Assembly (NCBI GenBank): GCA_947258875.1 | Contig: CAMYKB010000034.1 | Location: 1 to 40,448, forward strand | Direction: 5' to 3' | DNA length: 40,448 nucleotides | From: an uncultured Gammaproteobacteria bacterium | Lineage (GTDB): Bacteria; Pseudomonadota; Gammaproteobacteria; CAMYKB01 | Part shown: positions 1,313 through 40,448 of the stretch, one piece after another | How the letters are laid out: each line of letters begins with the position of its first letter | How positions within the stretch are numbered: position 1 is the first letter of the stretch | Notes under the pieces: generated by a model | Seen by the model: the letters and a program-made list of their open reading frames with translations, nothing else | Told to the model about the DNA's origin: nothing | Databases searched by the model: none | Position numbers and translations under genes: made by a program

Positions 1313-2938
1313 CTATCGCAGTTGGAAGTACGCGGAACTGATTAATACCGCCGCTACACCGGGCGCCACCTGCTCAGATACACCCGATGGCAGGCTTTCA
1401 TTTTCGCCGACACCGGTTTCCGTCACTAGCCAGTCGATCATGGTGGCGCGATCCTCACTCGAGAGTGGACGCATCAGGATGTTATTCACCAGCGCATCGA
1501 TAATGGTTGCAATGGTATTCGCCCCGCCGAGGAGGTTGCTGTAGTCGATCTGAAACACATCAAACGCTGTGATGAAAGGCGCATAACTAAAAAACGATAG
1601 TCGCCAGCGATTCAGCAGGCCGCCGGTATTGGCCCAGTAGCTCTGCGTGTCGGGATAGCCATCGGGTGTTGGCCAGTAAAACGCCAGCTGGCCAAGGATG
1701 CCCTGGGCAAAAAAGAACAGCTGTCCGTTATCCGTGGGATAGGCAGTGTCCGGCGCCAGGGCGCGTATGGTACCGGCAAGGTACTCCGTGGGCCGGGTAA
1801 ATTTAAGGTCAGCAGTGTCGCGAAACGCGGGCGCGGCGAACAACGCGCGCAATGTGGTTTTGATATCGCCGTTGGATGCGCTAAACGCCGCGGCCACCGC
1901 ATCGACGCTGGCTGTATCCGGATCGTCACTAATAAACCGGCGGCAGAGTTTGCTGGCGATAAAGCGCGCGGTGGAAGGATGCGTTGCCAGAATATCAAGC
2001 ACCTGCTCAGCGTCACTCTGCCCACCACCTGCGGCGATGGGATTGCCTAGCACTACTTTCGCAGCAGTGTCATGCACTGCCGGGATATAGTTAAAGGTTC
2101 CGTAAGCGCCACTGGTGTCATCAGGAAAGCGAATCGACCAACCGGTGAAACAACGCGCCACTTCTTTAACATCCTCCTCGGTATAGCCGCCGTCGACACC
2201 GAGTGTGTGCAATTCCATCAGCTCGCGCGCGTAATTTTCGTTGGGCGCGGATGCGAGATTAAAAAAATTGTCGAGATAAAACAGCATTGCCGGGCTGCGC
2301 GCCGATGCCCCCAGCAAGTCGCGGAAGTTGCCGAGTGCGTGGCCACGGATCACCGTGCGGTCGTCTTCGGGCTTGAGTGTGGGGCCCAGGCCGTTCACCA
2401 GGTGGATGTTGAAGTGGTCGGACCAAAATTCCACCATCACTTCATACAGCTGGCGTTGACTGAAGATTTGCCGGTACTGTGACGCAGCGATCATCTGTTG
2501 CGCCACCTCGGCTATGTTATCGGGAAAACCAACGAGCAACTGTGCCGGGGTCTGCGTGGTCAGCGGGAAAAGCGTCTGGATGGTGTTCTCGAGGTCACCG
2601 TCATTGATCGCCTGGTAATCCAGTTGGCTCTCGAGGTAGGCATCGATACCCATGCTCTGGATGACATTGAGCGCATCGCGATGCACACCGAAGCTGGTGC
2701 GTTTCAGCGCGGTGTATTCCAGCGAAGCGGTAGGGATCGGTGTTATCGGTGGCAAGGGGTTGCCACTACCGCCGCCGGAGCCACAGCCGGGCAGTGTCGC
2801 TGTGAGCGCGGAGTAGCCAAGACCCATACCCATGATTTTCAGAAAATCGCGACGGCTGTGCACGCTATCGAGCAGGGAATGCAGATCCATGGAAGCAGGA
2901 TCGCCCTTAAGCTTGGTTTTAGGCAAACGTATAGGCAA
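1313..2938 (-). CDS. DUF1800 family protein with Tat-type signal
   Basis: The 541-aa product carries SRRDFLK near residues 28-34, followed by a hydrophobic stretch and LPGC at 49-52. This is a twin-arginine signal with a possible lipobox, so the protein is probably exported folded and perhaps lipid-anchored. A Gly/Pro linker (residues 53-65) follows. Family blocks such as RTSFGVHRD, NYARELMELHTLGVDGGY and ARCFTGWS are clear, and the C-terminal half has the usual WPTPDGYP motif. DUF1800 has no proven reaction. The start is TTG at 2938 with GAGGG about 8 nt upstream. An ATG at 2890, just before the Tat motif, is the alternative. It heads the operon with the DUF1501 gene. Confidence 0.87.
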   Translation of the reverse strand: MPIRLPKTKLKGDPASMDLHSLLDSVHSRRDFLKIMGMGLGYSALTATLPGCGSGGGSGNPLPPITPIPTASLEYTALKRTSFGVHRDALNVIQSMGIDAYLESQLDYQAINDGDLENTIQTLFPLTTQTPAQLLVGFPDNIAEVAQQMIAASQYRQIFSQRQLYEVMVEFWSDHFNIHLVNGLGPTLKPEDDRTVIRGHALGNFRDLLGASARSPAMLFYLDNFFNLASAPNENYARELMELHTLGVDGGYTEEDVKEVARCFTGWSIRFPDDTSGAYGTFNYIPAVHDTAAKVVLGNPIAAGGGQSDAEQVLDILATHPSTARFIASKLCRRFISDDPDTASVDAVAAAFSASNGDIKTTLRALFAAPAFRDTADLKFTRPTEYLAGTIRALAPDTAYPTDNGQLFFFAQGILGQLAFYWPTPDGYPDTQSYWANTGGLLNRWRLSFFSYAPFITAFDVFQIDYSNLLGGANTIATIIDALVNNILMRPLSSEDRATMIDWLVTETGVGENESLPSGVSEQVAPGVAAVLISSAYFQLR

Positions 2939-3098
2939 AACAACGTCCCTCGTAGTGGTTCAGGGTTTCTTCCTAGTGCCGCGAGTATATCTTAGATAAT
3001 GCATAAGGAGCAGACGCGCTTCACACAGTAGTTGCAAATTCCGACGGATGGCATAGTGCCGACCATGAGGGTTGGTGATACTGCTGCACCACAAACAC

Positions 3099-3146
3099 GT
3101 CATACCCGCACATGCCTATATCCCTATAGGCATGTGCGGGTATGAC
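3099..3146. repeat. Perfect 22-bp inverted repeat with 4-nt loop
   Basis: The arms are 3099-3120 and 3125-3146 and match perfectly. The arms begin GTCATACCCGC and end GCGGGTATGAC, with loop TCCC. It lies 40 nt after the stop of the asparaginase-family gene. On the minus strand no T-run follows, so I class it as an extragenic palindrome that may also block read-through or protect the 3' end. A related but partial sequence (ATACCCGCC...TTGACGGTG) is seen near 29391-29417, which suggests a repeat family in this genome. Confidence 0.7.
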
Positions 3147-3185
3147 GGTGGAGTTAAAACTGTTTGATTGCTGCCTGAATATTTC

Positions 3186-4127
3186 TTAAAAGCGCACGTT
3201 TGTTACACCACCCTGCTCTATCCAGCCGTGGATCATTTTTTTGGTGGTGAAGCCGCTGGCGCAATTGCCGTGTTTGTCAATCACAATCAAACCACCACGA
3301 CCTTTGACCTTTCGAATTAGATAGTCAATACCCGCTTTCGTGGCTTGATTGGCATTCATCTCTTTCATGTAGATGAAGTCGGAGATAGTTTTTGAGATAA
3401 CGGTACGCATGAAGTCTTCGCCGTAACCGGTTGCAGAGGCCGCGCAGGTCTCGTTATCGGCGTATACGCCGGCACCAACGAGTGGGGAATCTCCCACCCG
3501 GCCTATGCGTTTGTTCACAATGCCGCCGGTTGATGTGGCCGCGGCCAGATTGCCTTGCGGATCACGCGCAATGGCCCCGATGGTGCCATATTTTTGATCT
3601 TCACTATCTTCCTCGGCGTCATCGTGATCAAGCATGAGTTTGTGTTTGCGCTTGGCCTGCTTGAGTTGTTCAATCCGTTCGGGCGTGTAAAAGTAAGTTT
3701 CCAGTGCGCGTGGCATGCCACAGTGATCGGCAAAGCGCAGGGCGCCTTCACCGATTAGCATGACATGTTCACTTTCGCTCAAGACCAAACGCGCCAGTTG
3801 TATAGGGTTTGCGATAGCGTCTATTGCTGCAACGGCACCGGCGGACACATCACGCCCGTCCATGATGGCGGCATCCATTTCCACCTTGCCGTCCTCATTT
3901 AATACCGAGCCGTAGCCGGCATTAAACAAGGGGTCGTCTTCCAGAAGAGAGGCACAGGCTTCAACGGCCTGCAGCGCAGAGCCACCGAGCTGCATGACTT
4001 CACGGCCATGCTCAAGTACACGTCGCAGGCTTTCGAGATAACGCACGGCGGTTTTTTGATCCTTGACGTTATCCAGTGTTCCGGCGCCACCATGGATCAT
4101 GATTGAATAGTTATTGGATCGATTCAT
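3186..4127 (-). CDS. Isoaspartyl peptidase / L-asparaginase (Ntn hydrolase)
   Basis: The 313-aa product belongs to the plant-type (type 2) asparaginase / isoaspartyl peptidase family. These enzymes self-cleave before a threonine that becomes the N-terminal nucleophile, and they hydrolyse beta-aspartyl dipeptides and asparagine. Seen here: IHGGAGTLD (11-19), NAGYGSVLNEDG (69-80), MDAAIMDG (84-91), the autocleavage site YGTIGAIA with Thr182 as predicted nucleophile, TSTGG and RIGRVGDSPLVGAGVYAD. The acidic stretch just before Thr182 (DHDDAEEDSEDQ) is the usual disordered linker. The length is typical. It sits 9 nt after the ATP-grasp gene, so the two are probably co-transcribed. No strong ribosome-binding site is visible; translational coupling would explain this. 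Confidence 0.9.
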   Translation of the reverse strand: MNRSNNYSIMIHGGAGTLDNVKDQKTAVRYLESLRRVLEHGREVMQLGGSALQAVEACASLLEDDPLFNAGYGSVLNEDGKVEMDAAIMDGRDVSAGAVAAIDAIANPIQLARLVLSESEHVMLIGEGALRFADHCGMPRALETYFYTPERIEQLKQAKRKHKLMLDHDDAEEDSEDQKYGTIGAIARDPQGNLAAATSTGGIVNKRIGRVGDSPLVGAGVYADNETCAASATGYGEDFMRTVISKTISDFIYMKEMNANQATKAGIDYLIRKVKGRGGLIVIDKHGNCASGFTTKKMIHGWIEQGGVTNVRF

Positions 4128-4136
4128 CCAAAAACT

Positions 4137-5255
4137 TTAACAGAGTCGTGCTTTGAGCTCCATCTTCAATGCATCTTGATATTCCAGCGAGCCCGCCAGC
4201 AGGACCATCAACCTGCCTTCCAGCACCGTGCCCCAATTGACAAGAATAGCGCCTTCACCGGTTTTTTTATCAAATTCAATATCGCTGAGGTCAATCCTGT
4301 TCAGACTGCGGTATTTGGTTGCAAACGTAAGAGCACTCCATTCCGGGATTCCAAGTTTCTGGGCAATCAATGTCGGGTATGAAGCCCCGTTATAGCGGGG
4401 ATTACATTCGATGGCGGGAAAACGTAGCCCGCTGTCGGTTTGCATCACGGCCACATCAAACGCAAAAATGCCTTGCATGCCCTGATCCTTGAGCCATAGC
4501 GCCATCGGCTCGACGATATTCCAGGGCTCGTATCGTGCCGGTACACGATTACCCTGGTGCGCAAAGCCATCGAGTATTTGTTCGCTCGCGGCCAAGCGGA
4601 TGACCTCGTTGTCGACGATTTTGTATTGCATGTTCAGGAAGATATCAGTCTTGACTTCCTCCTGTAGCTGCACAGGAATGCCATTATTGAATTTTTCAAG
4701 GTTGCCCTTTAACGCGGCCTGGCCTTCACAGCGGTAGATACCTACCCCTGAGACAGAGATGGCTGCCTTGAGGTAGCAGGGATAGCTCATGCCTTGCATC
4801 GCAGCATCATCGATCTGGGTGACATTGTCAAAACACAATGTTTTGGGCACATCAACGCCTAACTCATTGGCGAGTTTCATGAAATTGTTTTTGGAGTTGA
4901 TGAATGCCACGGTTTTGTACCATTCAAAATCCCCCCAGTTATCACACTCATTGGGGCCGAAAAAAAACACCGATGGATGGTAGCCGACATGCAGTCCCAG
5001 CTGATTTAAGCCGACAGTCCAGATGACATCTTTGGTATGACTCAAACCTATACGATCATAATGTGCAGTAATGTCCCCCCATAATGACTTGAGATCACTA
5101 TGCAATTGGATGATATCCCATGGCTCGGTCATGCCTAATGCGCGGCCGGAATATAGATGATTACCCACAACGCCATCGGCGGTGCAATTCATGATGTCGT
5201 GGTTATAAATATACTTTTTTGCTAACAGGTGGTCGTGAGCGATGGCAGCTGACAT
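4137..5255 (-). CDS. ATP-grasp family ligase of unknown substrate
   Basis: The 372-aa product shows ATP-grasp features. YPCYLKAAISVSGVGIYRC (about 159-177) supplies the nucleotide lysine and glycine loop. LQEEVK is hinge-like, and FDVAVMQ...RFPAIECNPRYNGASYP (about 267-295) supplies the metal-binding Glu and Asn. ATP-grasp enzymes join a carboxylate to an amine, thiol or similar group through an acyl phosphate. The substrate cannot be read from the sequence. Its position directly before an isoaspartyl peptidase suggests amide or isopeptide chemistry on Asp or Asn, which is inference. There is no Mur-ligase domain, so it is not a cyanophycin synthetase of the usual type. AGAGG stands 8-9 nt before the ATG. 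It is the first gene of the pair. Confidence 0.75.
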   Translation of the reverse strand: MSAAIAHDHLLAKKYIYNHDIMNCTADGVVGNHLYSGRALGMTEPWDIIQLHSDLKSLWGDITAHYDRIGLSHTKDVIWTVGLNQLGLHVGYHPSVFFFGPNECDNWGDFEWYKTVAFINSKNNFMKLANELGVDVPKTLCFDNVTQIDDAAMQGMSYPCYLKAAISVSGVGIYRCEGQAALKGNLEKFNNGIPVQLQEEVKTDIFLNMQYKIVDNEVIRLAASEQILDGFAHQGNRVPARYEPWNIVEPMALWLKDQGMQGIFAFDVAVMQTDSGLRFPAIECNPRYNGASYPTLIAQKLGIPEWSALTFATKYRSLNRIDLSDIEFDKKTGEGAILVNWGTVLEGRLMVLLAGSLEYQDALKMELKARLC

Positions 5256-33047: not shown

Positions 33048-36000
33048 TCAGGCCTGCCCCTGTTCTTGCCCCACTTCCACAAACCCCAGGTCCTCCAAAA
33101 TTGTGTAGGACGCAGGCAGTACCAGCAACGTCAGGAAGGTGGAAGCGATCATGCCGAACACCACACTGGCGACTAATGGTACGAGCACCTGGGCCTGCAG
33201 ACTGGTTTCCGATAACAACGGGAACATGCCAGCGACGGTGGTAACAGACGTGAGAAAAATGGCGCGAAAACGATCGCGCACGGCCTGACCGGCGGCATCG
33301 TGTAACGTCATTCCCTCAAGGCTGCGGTATTTAACATACTCGACCAGCAGTATTGAATCGTTCACCACAATGCCGGCCAGCGAAACAAAACCGATCATAC
33401 TGGGCAGGGTAAGATCAAGCCCCATGAGCAGGTGACCCCAGATCACGCCGATAAGTGCCAGCGGAATGTTAATGAGCACCACCAGGGGTTCACGGTAATT
33501 GCCAAATTGCAGGCTCAGCAGTAGATACACGCCGGCAATACCCAGAAGAAAACCACTCATAACCGATCTGTTGGTTTCCCGTGAATTCGCCACCTCACCT
33601 TCGAGGCTGATCGTGAGTCCGGGATAGCTCTGCTTTAATGTTGGCAGAAACCTTTTTTTGGTATCACTGATCACTTCGTTAGTGTTGGCAAGCTGCGAAT
33701 CAATATCGCCAGAGATGGTCACGGTACGCTGATGGTTAATACGCATGATACGCGCATATTCACGCGTTTCACTTAGTCGGGCAACGGCCGCCAGAGGGAT
33801 CGCTTCACCTTGTTTGGAAAACACGGTGAGACTTTCGAAGTCCGTTAACGCCTGTGCAGGGTCACTGTCCAGCTTAACATTGACTTCATAGGCTTCCCGG
33901 CCTTGATAGACATCTGCGACCTTCATGCCCTGATATGCGGCACGCAGTTGTATTGCGATTTGTTGGGCATCGAGCCCGGATGCCAGAGCGCCGGGATACA
34001 GGTTGACGCTGAACTGGGGTTTACCGGGGCGCAAATCATCCATGACGTTGGATACGCCGGGATAACCACTTAACCAGTTCTGCAATTCCCATGAGGCCCG
34101 CGACAACACATCAAGATCATCGCCTTGCAGGCGAATCGAGATAGCCTGCCCCGCCGGGCCGAAGGCCGGTTCCTTGAACTGGAGTGAAATTGCATCCGGA
34201 ATGTTCGGGGTAGAGGCCATCCATAACCGTCGCAACTCATTGAGGGAGGTGTTGCGTAGCTCTGCATCCAACAAATCGAGGCTGATGGTCGCGAGGTGCG
34301 CGCCCTCCTCACCGGCATCCGCATTGGTGCTATAAGATACCTGGACATTCTTCACCAGCTCGGCTTCGTCTTCTGCGGGAAGTTGTTCGCGGGCCAGTTG
34401 CAGACTAGCCAGTAATTCTTCGACTACAGCTTCGGTGCGCGCGAAGGGGGTACCCTGCGGCATCAGGATGCGGGCATCAAGGATATTGCCTTCCAGATCA
34501 GGAAAAGATTTGAATTTGATAAAACCAGCCGGGATCAAACTGATAGTGATGATAAACAGTGCGACAACTGAACCCAACATCAGGTAGCGGTAACGGATAG
34601 CCATGTCACCCAGCGCGCCAACGCGTTGACGCAGGTGATCAAACCCGGTTTCTAAGCGCTCACGCCACTCGGGCCTTTTCTGCTCATGATGGCGTTCAAG
34701 GGAGTGTTCCAAATGATGCGGCAGAATCAGGAAGGCTTCAATTAAACTGATGGTCAGCACTGACAACAGAACCACCGGCAACACGCCCATGATCTGCCCC
34801 ATGTCGCCCTTAAGGAACAACAGGCTACCAAACAAAATTGCTGAAGTAGTAAAAGAGGAGAACACTCCGCGTGCAACCCGTTTGATGCCGCCCACCGCAG
34901 CCTGCAGCGGACTTTTACCATTTCGATATTCGGTCTCGATACTTTCGGAGATGACGATAGCATCATCCATGAGGATACCGATAGCCATCAGCAGTGCGAC
35001 CATGGAAATCATGTTGATGCTGACACCAAGCACACTCATCACCACCAACCCGCCGATAAAAGAAATGGGCAAGCCTAACGCCACCCAAAAGGTGTAACGC
35101 CAGTTAAAAAACAGGAACAGCGCCAGGGTCGCAAGGATCAGACCCTGCCAGCCATTTTTCAGCAACAGACTCAAACGATCCTGCACGATAGAGGCGGTGT
35201 CCTGAGTAATCACCAGACGCGTACTATCCGGCAAACGCGCGTTTTCCTCATCAACGAATTTCTTCACCGCATTAAATATGGTAAGTGTGTCGTCACTTTT
35301 GTTTTTACTGATTTGCAACATGGCGGCCGGGCGGCCGTTCAAATCAGTACGTTTTTCTTCATCAGAAAAATCATCGACGACCCTGGCTAGATCTCCCAGG
35401 CGCAGCTGGCCACCCCTGACGTTATCAAGAATAATTAAATCCGCCAGCTCATCGACGCTGCGACGTTCATTCTCGAAACGAATCTGGTACGACCGCTCAT
35501 CGGCATCCAGCGTACCCGCCGGCATGTCGATGGATTGTGCTTTAATAAGGTTGGCTATATCCTCGATACTTAATTGATACTGGCGCAACATCTCCGCATC
35601 GACCAACACACTGAGTTCGTGTGTCGAAAAACCAGTCACTGTTACAATGGGCACATCCGACAACACCAATAAACGGTTACGGTAATATTCCGCGAGCCCT
35701 TTGAGTTCAGGCTGGGTGAGATCTGCATTGATCGCGACACTCACTACGGGCTCGGTACGGCCGAGCTCTTCCACTACCGGTTCCTCGGAATTGTCCGGAA
35801 AGTCAGTAATGCCATCGACGGCGGAATTGACATCATCTATAAACTTCTGAATATCTCCCTCTTCCTGCATATCCAGGGTCAGCGTACCGAGATTGTCACG
35901 AGCCTCGCAGCGCTGTTCTTCCAGAAAACTAATACCATCGGTAGCGTCTTCAAGACGGTTACAAATGCCTTCTTCAACGTCACCGGGACTGGCACCCAGA

Positions 36001-38938: not shown

Positions 38939-39919
38939 ATGAAAGCGATTGTATTTACGGAATACGGATCACCAGACCTTCTGCAGCTCAAAGAGGTAGC
39001 AAAACCCGCACCGAAGGACGACGAAGTACTGATAAAGGTTCACGCAGCATCTATCAATTCGTGGGACTTGGAGTTTCAAAGTGGTATGTTCGTAAACCGC
39101 CTTCTATTCGGACTTTTTAAACCGAAGCCGGAGAAACAGATACTTGGAGCTGATATAGCTGGGACGGTTGAAACGGTTGGCAAAAAAGTAACGCGCTTCC
39201 AACCTGGCGATGAGGTGTTCGGCGACCTATGGGATAGCTGGGGCGGTTTTGCTGAGTATGCATGTGCTCGCGAGACGGCCTTGGAGCTGAAACCGGCCCA
39301 TTCGACTTTTGAGGAGGCTGCCGCCGTGCCCCAAGCAGGCGTTTTGGCCCTCCAAGGGCTTCGCAAGACCGGACAGATCCAGCCAGGACAGAGGGTTTTG
39401 ATTAATGGCGCTGGCGGTGGTGTTGGTACATTTGCAGTGCAGTTAGCCAAGCTCATCGGGACTGAAGTAACGGGCGTAGACAGCACCCAAAAGCTGGAGG
39501 TCATTCGCTCGATTGGTGCTGACCATGTTATCGATTACACGCAAGAGGATTTCACCCAGAACGGACAGCGATACGACCTGATTCTTGATGTTCATGGGTT
39601 TCGGTCGATGTTTGATTACAGACATGCATTAAGCCCTAACGGGACTTATGCCATGGTCGGTGGCGCTGTTCCCAGGATCTTTCAAGCGCTCTTTCTGGGA
39701 TTGTGGGGTTCAATAACCCGGAGCCAGAAGTTTCGTTTGGTGGCGGAGGGACCAAATAAAGGGTTGGCAGATCTGAAAGAGCTCATCGAAGCCGGCAAGG
39801 TCGTTCCAATTATCGACACAGTTTACAAGTTGAGCGAGGCACCTGAAGCGTTCCGTCACTTCGGAGCAGGTCGCCACAAAGGAAAGGTCGTAATTTGTAT
39901 TAGCTCAGACTTTAGCTAA
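38939..39919 (+). CDS. MDR-family NADPH:quinone oxidoreductase-like enzyme
   Basis: The 326-aa product has the medium-chain dehydrogenase layout: an N-terminal catalytic GroES-like domain (VLIKVHAASINSWDLEFQSGMF), GADIAGTVETVGKKVTRFQPGDEVFG and a nucleotide domain with NGAGGGVGTFAVQLAKL (about 148-164). No zinc-ligand Cys/His set is visible, so it is of the quinone-oxidoreductase or reductase type. The start has a full GGAGG ribosome site. The nearby attC-like element is on the other strand, so this gene looks to be the chromosomal flank and not a cassette. Confidence 0.88.
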   Translation: MKAIVFTEYGSPDLLQLKEVAKPAPKDDEVLIKVHAASINSWDLEFQSGMFVNRLLFGLFKPKPEKQILGADIAGTVETVGKKVTRFQPGDEVFGDLWDSWGGFAEYACARETALELKPAHSTFEEAAAVPQAGVLALQGLRKTGQIQPGQRVLINGAGGGVGTFAVQLAKLIGTEVTGVDSTQKLEVIRSIGADHVIDYTQEDFTQNGQRYDLILDVHGFRSMFDYRHALSPNGTYAMVGGAVPRIFQALFLGLWGSITRSQKFRLVAEGPNKGLADLKELIEAGKVVPIIDTVYKLSEAPEAFRHFGAGRHKGKVVICISSDFS

Positions 39920-40017: not shown

Positions 40018-40073
40018 CATTAACGTATAAATAAGCCGCGCGGTTTTTGCGTCGGCTTGATTGTTTGTTAGAT
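40018..40073 (-). other. attC-like integron recombination site
   Basis: On the minus strand the 56-nt element reads: R'' box ATCTAAC (consensus RYYYAAC), 8-nt spacer, L'' AAGCCG-A-CGC, 7-nt loop, L' GCGCGGCTT, 8-nt spacer, R' GTTAATG (consensus GTTRRRY; core GTT kept, outer bases off). The two L boxes pair over 9 bp with a single unpaired A, the extrahelical base typical of attC. The length and the sequence of the stem are close to the aadA attC sites. The TAA stop of the gene upstream lies inside the R'' box, the usual cassette arrangement. Confidence 0.75.
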
Positions 40074-40448
40074 CGTTCCATTGTCTCGCAATGCTCTCAA
40101 TTCTTTGGTCAAGGCATCTTCAAGATCCCTAATCTTCTTATAGGGCAGGCATCTTTGGCCTCTTGTATCGAATTTAAGATGGTTCGTATCTTTAACTAGA
40201 AGGACTGTCGGAACTTCACATCCCCAAGCATATCCCACCTCAAGATAGACATTAGGATTGGCTTCCGTAAGATCAGCGATGACTAATGTCGCCGTTCTGA
40301 CTCGTTCGCGAACCCAGTCCATAACATCACCCGTAAAAGATGAAAGATCAGCCCTTTCGCAAAGGAAGCCAGCACTGCGAACCGCACCTTGAATACCGTA
40401 GTGGTAAACGTCATCCATCTCATCCTTGAAAGGCATGGCCACGAATAC
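40068..40448 (-). CDS. TIR / nucleoside-2-deoxyribosyltransferase-fold protein, 5' end outside window
   Basis: The visible 127 codons (last residues ...RDNGTI) begin at VFVAMPFKDEMDD, a usual family start, and the frame runs past the window edge, so a few residues or more may be missing. The conserved VIADLTEANPNVYLEVGYAWG contains the Glu that is catalytic in both nucleoside deoxyribosyltransferases and TIR NADases, and the early MPF motif is typical. The protein may act on NAD or nucleotides, as stand-alone TIR-like domains do in phage defence, which is inference. The stop codon lies in the attC-like element, so this should be an integron cassette gene. Confidence 0.75.
   Translation of the reverse strand, partial: VFVAMPFKDEMDDVYHYGIQGAVRSAGFLCERADLSSFTGDVMDWVRERVRTATLVIADLTEANPNVYLEVGYAWGCEVPTVLLVKDTNHLKFDTRGQRCLPYKKIRDLEDALTKELRALRDNGTI

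What the first reader, a model, noticed from the sequence alone, without database searches (positions are those of the whole stretch)
40018..40448. attC-like site joined to a TIR/deoxyribosyltransferase-fold gene: candidate integron defence cassette
A 56-bp element with paired L boxes, one extrahelical A, an R'' box and a GTT core overlaps the stop codon of a TIR-like gene. This is the expected arrangement of a gene cassette. The R' side departs from consensus, which suits the last cassette in an array. TIR-like domains are frequent phage-defence effectors, and integrons have been reported to carry defence cassettes. The gene family and its cassette setting together make a testable defence candidate.
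Basis: partly seen in the sequence, partly recalled or inferred. Interest (0 to 1): 0.78.

Follow-up and report, generated by a model that had tools for sequence, protein, structure and literature searches.

The report
Integron gene cassette with TIR/NDT-like gene
The end of this contig carries a genuine integron recombination site (attC) fused to the tail of a gene whose family, a macro domain joined to a TIR/nucleoside-deoxyribosyltransferase-like enzyme, is also carried as an integron cassette in a distant phylum; an antiphage role is plausible but untested, and integrons carrying defence genes are already known.

Summary
The 56-bp element at 40073..40018 (minus strand) is a textbook attC: the only hit in 40 kb with a covariance model trained on other attC sites (28.1 bits, E 1.8e-4), and a motif that arose in 0 of 300 simulated windows. 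It has two extrahelical bases (C and A), not one. The window is a whole contig (C34), so the array cannot be followed past 40448, but the same genome has an intact intI with three cassettes on contig C41 and about 20 further attC sites in at least eight places. The gene is truncated: only its last 126 codons are present. Homologs (55-74% identical) in at least eight phyla are ~330-aa proteins with an N-terminal macro-fold domain and a C-terminal NDT/TIR-fold domain with an invariant Glu. They sit beside unrelated genes, not in a fixed operon. Two Planctomycetota copies are also attC-associated cassettes, as is a remoter gammaproteobacterial relative. Integron defence cassettes were published in 2025, so this is a new member of a known kind, with an architecture I did not find described.

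The parts
40018..40073 (-). attC recombination site (56 bp), last attC of a cassette array
   Evidence: Leave-one-out covariance model R2: 28.1 bits, E 1.8e-4, only hit in the window; strict motif 0/300 in simulations; fold of the + strand z -3.5; 91% identical over 34 bp to the attC at C36:486-519
40067..40073 (-). R'' box ATCTAAC; contains the stop codon TAA (40070-40068)
   Evidence: Sequence
40049..40062 (-). L'' box AAT[C]AAGCCG[A]CGC with extrahelical C40059 and A40052 (G and T on the recombining strand)
   Evidence: Sequence and pairing
40030..40041 (-). L' box GCGCGGCTTATT, pairs fully with L'' (12 bp)
   Evidence: Sequence
40018..40024 (-). R' box GTTAATG; inferred exchange point G^TT between 40024 and 40023
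   Evidence: Sequence; exchange point from established attC biology
40068..40448 (-). 3' part (126 codons and stop) of a macro-NDT/TIR-like gene, truncated by the contig end; P0001
   Evidence: PF05014 E 3.9e-4, below cut-off; PADLOC TIR effector PDLC00733 E 2e-11; AF2 model pLDDT 88.7 with Foldseek hits to NDT, DNPH1, BcmB, TIR-STING and SPARTA; homologs 55-74% identical
40239..40241 (-). Codon of invariant Glu70 in NPNVYLEVGYAW, the position of the catalytic Glu of NDT/CMP N-glycosidases
   Evidence: Invariant in 17 of 17; weakly aligned with the Glu of GTHVEIGWASG in CMP hydrolase 4jem, E 1.2
38939..39919 (+). Zinc-type alcohol dehydrogenase gene facing the array end: chromosomal flank, not part of the cassette
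   Evidence: PF13602 and PF08240; no attC near it

Best explanation
Window 40018-40448 is the 3' end of an integron gene cassette, the last of an array cut by the contig end. Its attC works in the usual way: the window's + strand (the cassette's bottom strand) folds into the L/R hairpin, IntI binds it through the extrahelical bases and exchanges strands between G and TT of R', so the cassette can be excised or inserted whole; an intact IntI is encoded on contig C41 of the same genome. The gene, if complete upstream, encodes a ~330-aa protein: an N-terminal macro-fold domain (inferred ADP-ribose-type ligand binding) and a C-terminal NDT/TIR-fold N-glycosidase with a catalytic Glu. The most likely role (inferred) is a one-gene antiphage module in which the C-terminal domain splits NAD+ or another nucleotide on infection, with the macro domain acting in cis as sensor, regulator or product sink. 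Shown here: the attC, the integron setting in the genome, predicted domain folds, the invariant Glu, and cassette boundaries in Planctomycetota relatives. Inferred: enzymatic activity, substrate, ligand and defence. The confidence given is for the whole chain including defence; for the cassette part alone it is about 0.95.
For: attC. IntI intact: TIGR02249 508.7 bits against a 265 cut-off, with three cassettes beside it. About 20 other attC sites in the genome. Domains: full-length homologs; AF2 pLDDT 86.8 and pTM 0.87; Foldseek macro domains YmdB (TM 0.72), PARP14, macroH2A and the PepA N-domain; C-domain Foldseek NDT, DNPH1, BcmB, TIR-STING, SPARTA. Cassettes elsewhere: Planctomycetaceae L046 with attC at 2816-2875, 3310-3369 and 4392-4451 (26, 43 and 29 bits; the 3310 site was in the R2 training set, the other two were not); Planctomycetota L049 with perfectly complementary ends GTTAGCTGC/GCAGCTAAC; remote relative L082 with an attC of 25.8 bits right after its stop. 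Horizontal spread: the tree groups Chromatiaceae with Chlorobiaceae (99/98) and Gallionellales and Crenothrix with another Chlorobiaceae (100/98). Defence neighbours: a DUF4062 gene after the L046 cassette (DUF4062 reported as antiphage NADase, PMC13174449) and type I methyltransferase ORFs beside L056. Integron defence cassettes as a class: PMC12409362 and references therein.
Against: No functional data. The N-terminal half is missing from the assembly, so the gene could be broken. The Pfam NDT hit is below its cut-off and the PADLOC hit covers only about 70 residues. Most relatives (15 of 17) have no attC found by the model, so the family is not a dedicated cassette family. Most neighbourhoods are housekeeping genes. 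IntI in 6 of 17 homolog genomes is no more than the 71 of 185 in Gammaproteobacteria at large. NDT-fold enzymes also include ordinary nucleotide salvage and sanitation enzymes.
Confidence: 0.45

Rival explanations
1. Genuine integron cassette, but the protein is a metabolic or house-cleaning N-glycosidase (deoxynucleotide sanitation or salvage, DNPH1- or BcmB-like) or an ADP-ribose-processing enzyme, not a defence effector.
For: Best Foldseek hits of the C-domain are NDT, DNPH1 and CMP N-glycosidase; the macro domain could process ADP-ribose adducts; most relatives sit beside housekeeping genes; the other cassettes of this genome look functionally miscellaneous.
Against: Rare and patchy across many phyla, a single gene at unrelated loci, with TIR effectors among the structural matches; this fits conflict systems better than core metabolism.
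Confidence: 0.35
2. The cassette is a dead remnant: an attC at a decayed array end with a truncated or disabled gene.
For: The genome has several decayed integron platforms, with intI fragments on C38, C17, C53 and C11; the N-terminal half of the gene is nowhere in the assembly; there is no intI on this contig.
Against: The 126 codons present are open and keep every invariant family residue; the contig simply ends, as cassette arrays often do in draft assemblies (PMC9024848).
Confidence: 0.15
3. Chance hairpin or terminator that happens to look like attC.
For: It follows a stop codon and contains a hairpin; attC-like inverted repeats are short.
Against: Leave-one-out E 1.8e-4 and the only hit in 40 kb; 0 of 300 simulations; genome full of attC with an intact intI; near-identical attC core on C36.
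Confidence: 0.02

Closest known systems
Integron defence cassettes (Darracq 2025, Kieffer 2025, Getz 2025, as reviewed in PMC12409362)
   Same: Single-gene cassette with attC in a genome with a chromosomal integron; putative defence gene of modest size
   Different: A protein family not named in the review passages read, a non-Vibrio host, a broken array end, and no phage test
Macro-containing Thoeris (TM-macro ThsA + TIR ThsB; PMC11204291)
   Same: Combines a macro domain with a TIR/NDT-type nucleotide-cleaving domain
   Different: Here both are in one protein and no recurrent ThsB-like partner gene was seen beside the homologs
Swarozyc (DUF4062 TIR-like NADase; PMC13174449)
   Same: TIR-like domain distantly similar to NDT with a conserved Glu; patchy distribution across many phyla
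   Different: A different Pfam family: this protein hits PF05014 weakly and not DUF4062; its auxiliary domain is macro-like
Nucleoside 2-deoxyribosyltransferase / DNPH1 / CMP N-glycosidase (PF05014 fold)
   Same: Predicted fold and position of the catalytic Glu
   Different: Sequence below the Pfam cut-off; extra N-terminal macro-fold domain in the homologs

Membership tests
attC site | R'' RYYYAAC and R' GTTRRRY with GTT core | tested here: met
   R'' exact; R' GTTAATG keeps GTT and the first two R positions, with two mismatches as expected when the following bases are not a cassette
attC site | Paired L''/L' stem with extrahelical bases | tested here: met
   12 bp, extrahelical C and A, six pairs apart
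attC site | Covariance-model score above chance | tested here: met
   R2, trained without the site: 28.1 bits, E 1.8e-4. IntegronFinder's own model was not available
attC site | Recombines with IntI | not testable with these tools
   Needs an excision assay
Integron gene cassette | ORF followed at once by attC in the same orientation | tested here: met
   Stop codon lies in R''
Integron gene cassette | Cassette start bounded by another attC or attI | not testable with these tools
   Contig ends inside the gene; met for homolog L046 and by boundary complementarity for L049
Complete integron | intI and attC array together | tested here: inconclusive
   intI with array on C41; linkage to C34 cannot be resolved
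CALIN | At least two attC in a cluster without intI (IntegronFinder 2 default, PMC9024848) | tested here: not met
   One attC on the contig; the contig is truncated, so it is not filed as CALIN
NDT/TIR-like superfamily (PF05014 and relatives) | Fold and conserved Glu | tested here: met
   Foldseek probability 1.00 to NDT, DNPH1, BcmB, TIR-STING, SPARTA; Glu70 invariant
NDT/TIR-like superfamily (PF05014 and relatives) | Score above the curated Pfam cut-off of PF05014 | tested here: not met
   21.0 bits against 28.8
Thoeris | Separate ThsA effector and TIR ThsB genes | tested here: not met
   Homolog neighbourhoods show no recurrent partner gene
Antiphage defence system | Reduces phage propagation | not testable with these tools
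   No functional data; indirect evidence only

The most novel reading that the evidence does not exclude
A single-gene, macro-domain-regulated TIR/NDT NADase, in effect a Thoeris-like circuit folded into one protein, that travels between phyla as an integron cassette.
Probability: 0.2. Interest if true: 0.7.

Novelty: new member of a known kind. Interest (0 to 1): 0.45.

Why it matters
If the family is antiphage, it adds an unusual two-domain protein to the growing list of defence genes that integrons store and swap, and shows such cassettes outside the well-studied Vibrio and clinical integrons, in Planctomycetota as well as in a gammaproteobacterium. The single-gene design makes it easy to test.

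Tried and rejected
A loose R''/R' scan gave far too many pairs and was replaced by stem-based scans and covariance models. Rejected: 'one extrahelical A' (there are two bases). Rejected: enrichment of IntI among homolog hosts (6/17), because the Gammaproteobacteria sample gives 71/185. Rejected: family restricted to cassettes (15 of 17 relatives have no attC found by the model). No viral-contig relatives. A search for the missing N-terminal half in the own genome found nothing. phmmer against PDB with the single sequence found nothing. Phage and plasmid relatives are distant (about 35% identity at most among those listed). The literature search for a macro-NDT/TIR fusion found no description, but the library holds only open-licence papers.

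Full report
What is in the sequence. The window is the whole of contig C34 of a 3.01-Mb, 67-contig genome, so the finding lies at a contig end and cannot be extended. On the minus strand, 40073-40018 reads ATCTAAC-AAAC-AAT[C]AAGCCG[A]CGC-AAAAACC-GCGCGGCTTATT-TATAC-GTTAATG. This is a complete attC: exact R'' (RYYYAAC), a 12-bp L stem interrupted by two extrahelical bases (C and A on this strand, hence G and T on the strand that recombines) six pairs apart, a 7-base loop, and an R' with intact GTT core. The stop codon TAA of the minus-strand gene lies inside R''.

More than chance. I aligned ten sites and built model R1, then collected 20 sites without the window's and built R2. R2 finds the window site as its only match in 40,448 bases on both strands, 28.1 bits, E 1.8e-4. 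A strict motif (exact R'', GTT, 12 paired L bases with the bulge geometry) occurs once in the window and in none of 300 first-order Markov simulations. Folded as single-stranded DNA the + strand scores z -3.5.

Integron setting. The genome encodes an intact integron integrase on C41 (TIGR02249, 508.7 bits against a 265 cut-off), oriented away from three cassettes with attC at C41:1123-1049, 626-546 and 208-133. R2 lists 23 sites at E <= 0.1 genome-wide on C41, C36, C31, C27, C38, C22, C5, C20, C17 and C3; that scan scored only 150 of 706 candidates and missed the window's own site, so it is a lower bound. C36 and C27 begin inside arrays and run into ordinary chromosomal genes, as C34 does. The window is therefore one of several array ends whose proximal side is lost at a contig break, a known effect of similar attC sites in draft assemblies (PMC9024848). 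Whether it joins the C41 integrase cannot be decided. The R' departure from consensus, the absence of further attC and the facing alcohol dehydrogenase gene (38939-39919) fit a last cassette.

The gene. Only its last 126 codons are present. Seventeen relatives came from genomes of cyanobacteria, Planctomycetota, Chloroflexota, Verrucomicrobiota, Bacteroidota, Chlorobiota, Acidobacteriota, Pseudomonadota and Melainabacteria; the sixteen aligned are 55-74% identical over this part. One (L048, listed at 88% for its best segment) is frameshifted and was left out. Full-length relatives are about 320-337 aa. AlphaFold2 on the alignment gave pLDDT 86.8 and pTM 0.87, and Foldseek matched the N-terminal domain to macro domains (YmdB, PARP14, macroH2A) and to the related N-terminal domain of leucine aminopeptidase; Pfam M17_N was weakly hit as well. 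The window's own part, modelled at pLDDT 88.7, matched nucleoside deoxyribosyltransferases, CMP N-glycosidase and DNPH1, with TIR-STING and SPARTA TIR domains also among the hits. Glu70 of NPNVYLEVGYAW is invariant in 17 sequences and aligns, in a weak profile match (E 1.2), with the Glu of a CMP hydrolase. That the window gene itself has this N-terminal half is inference: it is absent from the assembly.

Is the family a cassette elsewhere? In Planctomycetaceae L046 the gene (3383-4378) lies between attC sites at 3310-3369 and 4392-4451, with another at 2816-2875; the 3310 site was in the R2 training set, the other two were not. In Planctomycetota L049 the gene's ends carry perfectly complementary GTTAGCTGC and GCAGCTAAC, and two similar attC-like repeats follow, though the model scores them poorly or not at all. 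A remote relative in another gammaproteobacterium (L082, 268 aa, NDT domain at the N-terminus) is followed directly by an attC of 125 bp, 25.8 bits. The other relatives have no detectable attC, so the family is sometimes, not always, a cassette. It is rare: one weak hit among the other genomes of a 369-genome Gammaproteobacteria sample, none in 397 other Pseudomonadota, one partial hit among 293 other Planctomycetota. The tree of the C-domain is poorly resolved but joins Chromatiaceae to Chlorobiaceae (99/98) and Gallionellales with Crenothrix to another Chlorobiaceae (100/98), which indicates transfer.

Defence or not. For: the fold class is a recurrent source of NADase effectors and signal makers in conflict systems (PMC9503650, PMC13174449); patchy single-gene distribution; a DUF4062 gene follows the L046 cassette and type I methyltransferase ORFs precede L056; integrons are documented defence stores (PMC12409362). 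Against: most neighbours are housekeeping genes, the PADLOC hit is partial, and the closest folds include sanitation and salvage enzymes. IntI is not enriched in homolog hosts (6/17, against 71/185). I put defence at a little under one half.

Known or new. Integron defence cassettes are an established kind. The two-domain macro-NDT/TIR protein resembles macro Thoeris in its parts but has no separate partner gene, and I found no description of the fusion in the open-licence library. I file it as a new member of a known kind, with a possible variant if the one-protein circuit is real.

Noticed in passing
G000 contigs C41, C38, C17, C53, C11 (L010, L020, L022, L021, L011): One intact intI (C41, before ubiD) and several decayed intI copies: C38 (with 2 attC and a masked stretch inside), C17 (with attC at 34988-35051), C53 after glmS, and C11 at the contig start with an internal deletion. 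A genome with many integron platforms.
   Followed up: partly
L010:1-1500, L009:1-4140, L041:1-7420, L039:6735-6815, L040:1090-1177, L042:6780-7345: Dispersed cassette arrays in the same genome; C27 (L041) includes an unusually long 517-aa cassette ORF (2675-4228) that looks by eye like a glutamate-synthase-type protein, plus cupin-, hydrolase-, SDR- and methyltransferase-like ORFs.
   Followed up: partly
L082:942-1878 (G217): Remote NDT-domain gene (268 aa) followed directly by a 125-bp attC in another gammaproteobacterium, so NDT/TIR-type cassettes recur.
   Followed up: partly
L046:4837-8064: DUF4062 protein of 1075 aa after the Planctomycetaceae cassette: possible Swarozyc-like NADase.
   Followed up: partly
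L056:38-5039: Chlorobiaceae homolog lies after type I methyltransferase ORFs and before an ORF (3666-5039) that may be the single SAVED/TIR-like PADLOC hit; that assignment was not checked.
   Followed up: no
L011:1-130 and L020:2980-3130: The start of C11 and the attI-side region of C38 share sequence in inverted orientation, which may explain why contigs break at integron platforms.
   Followed up: no
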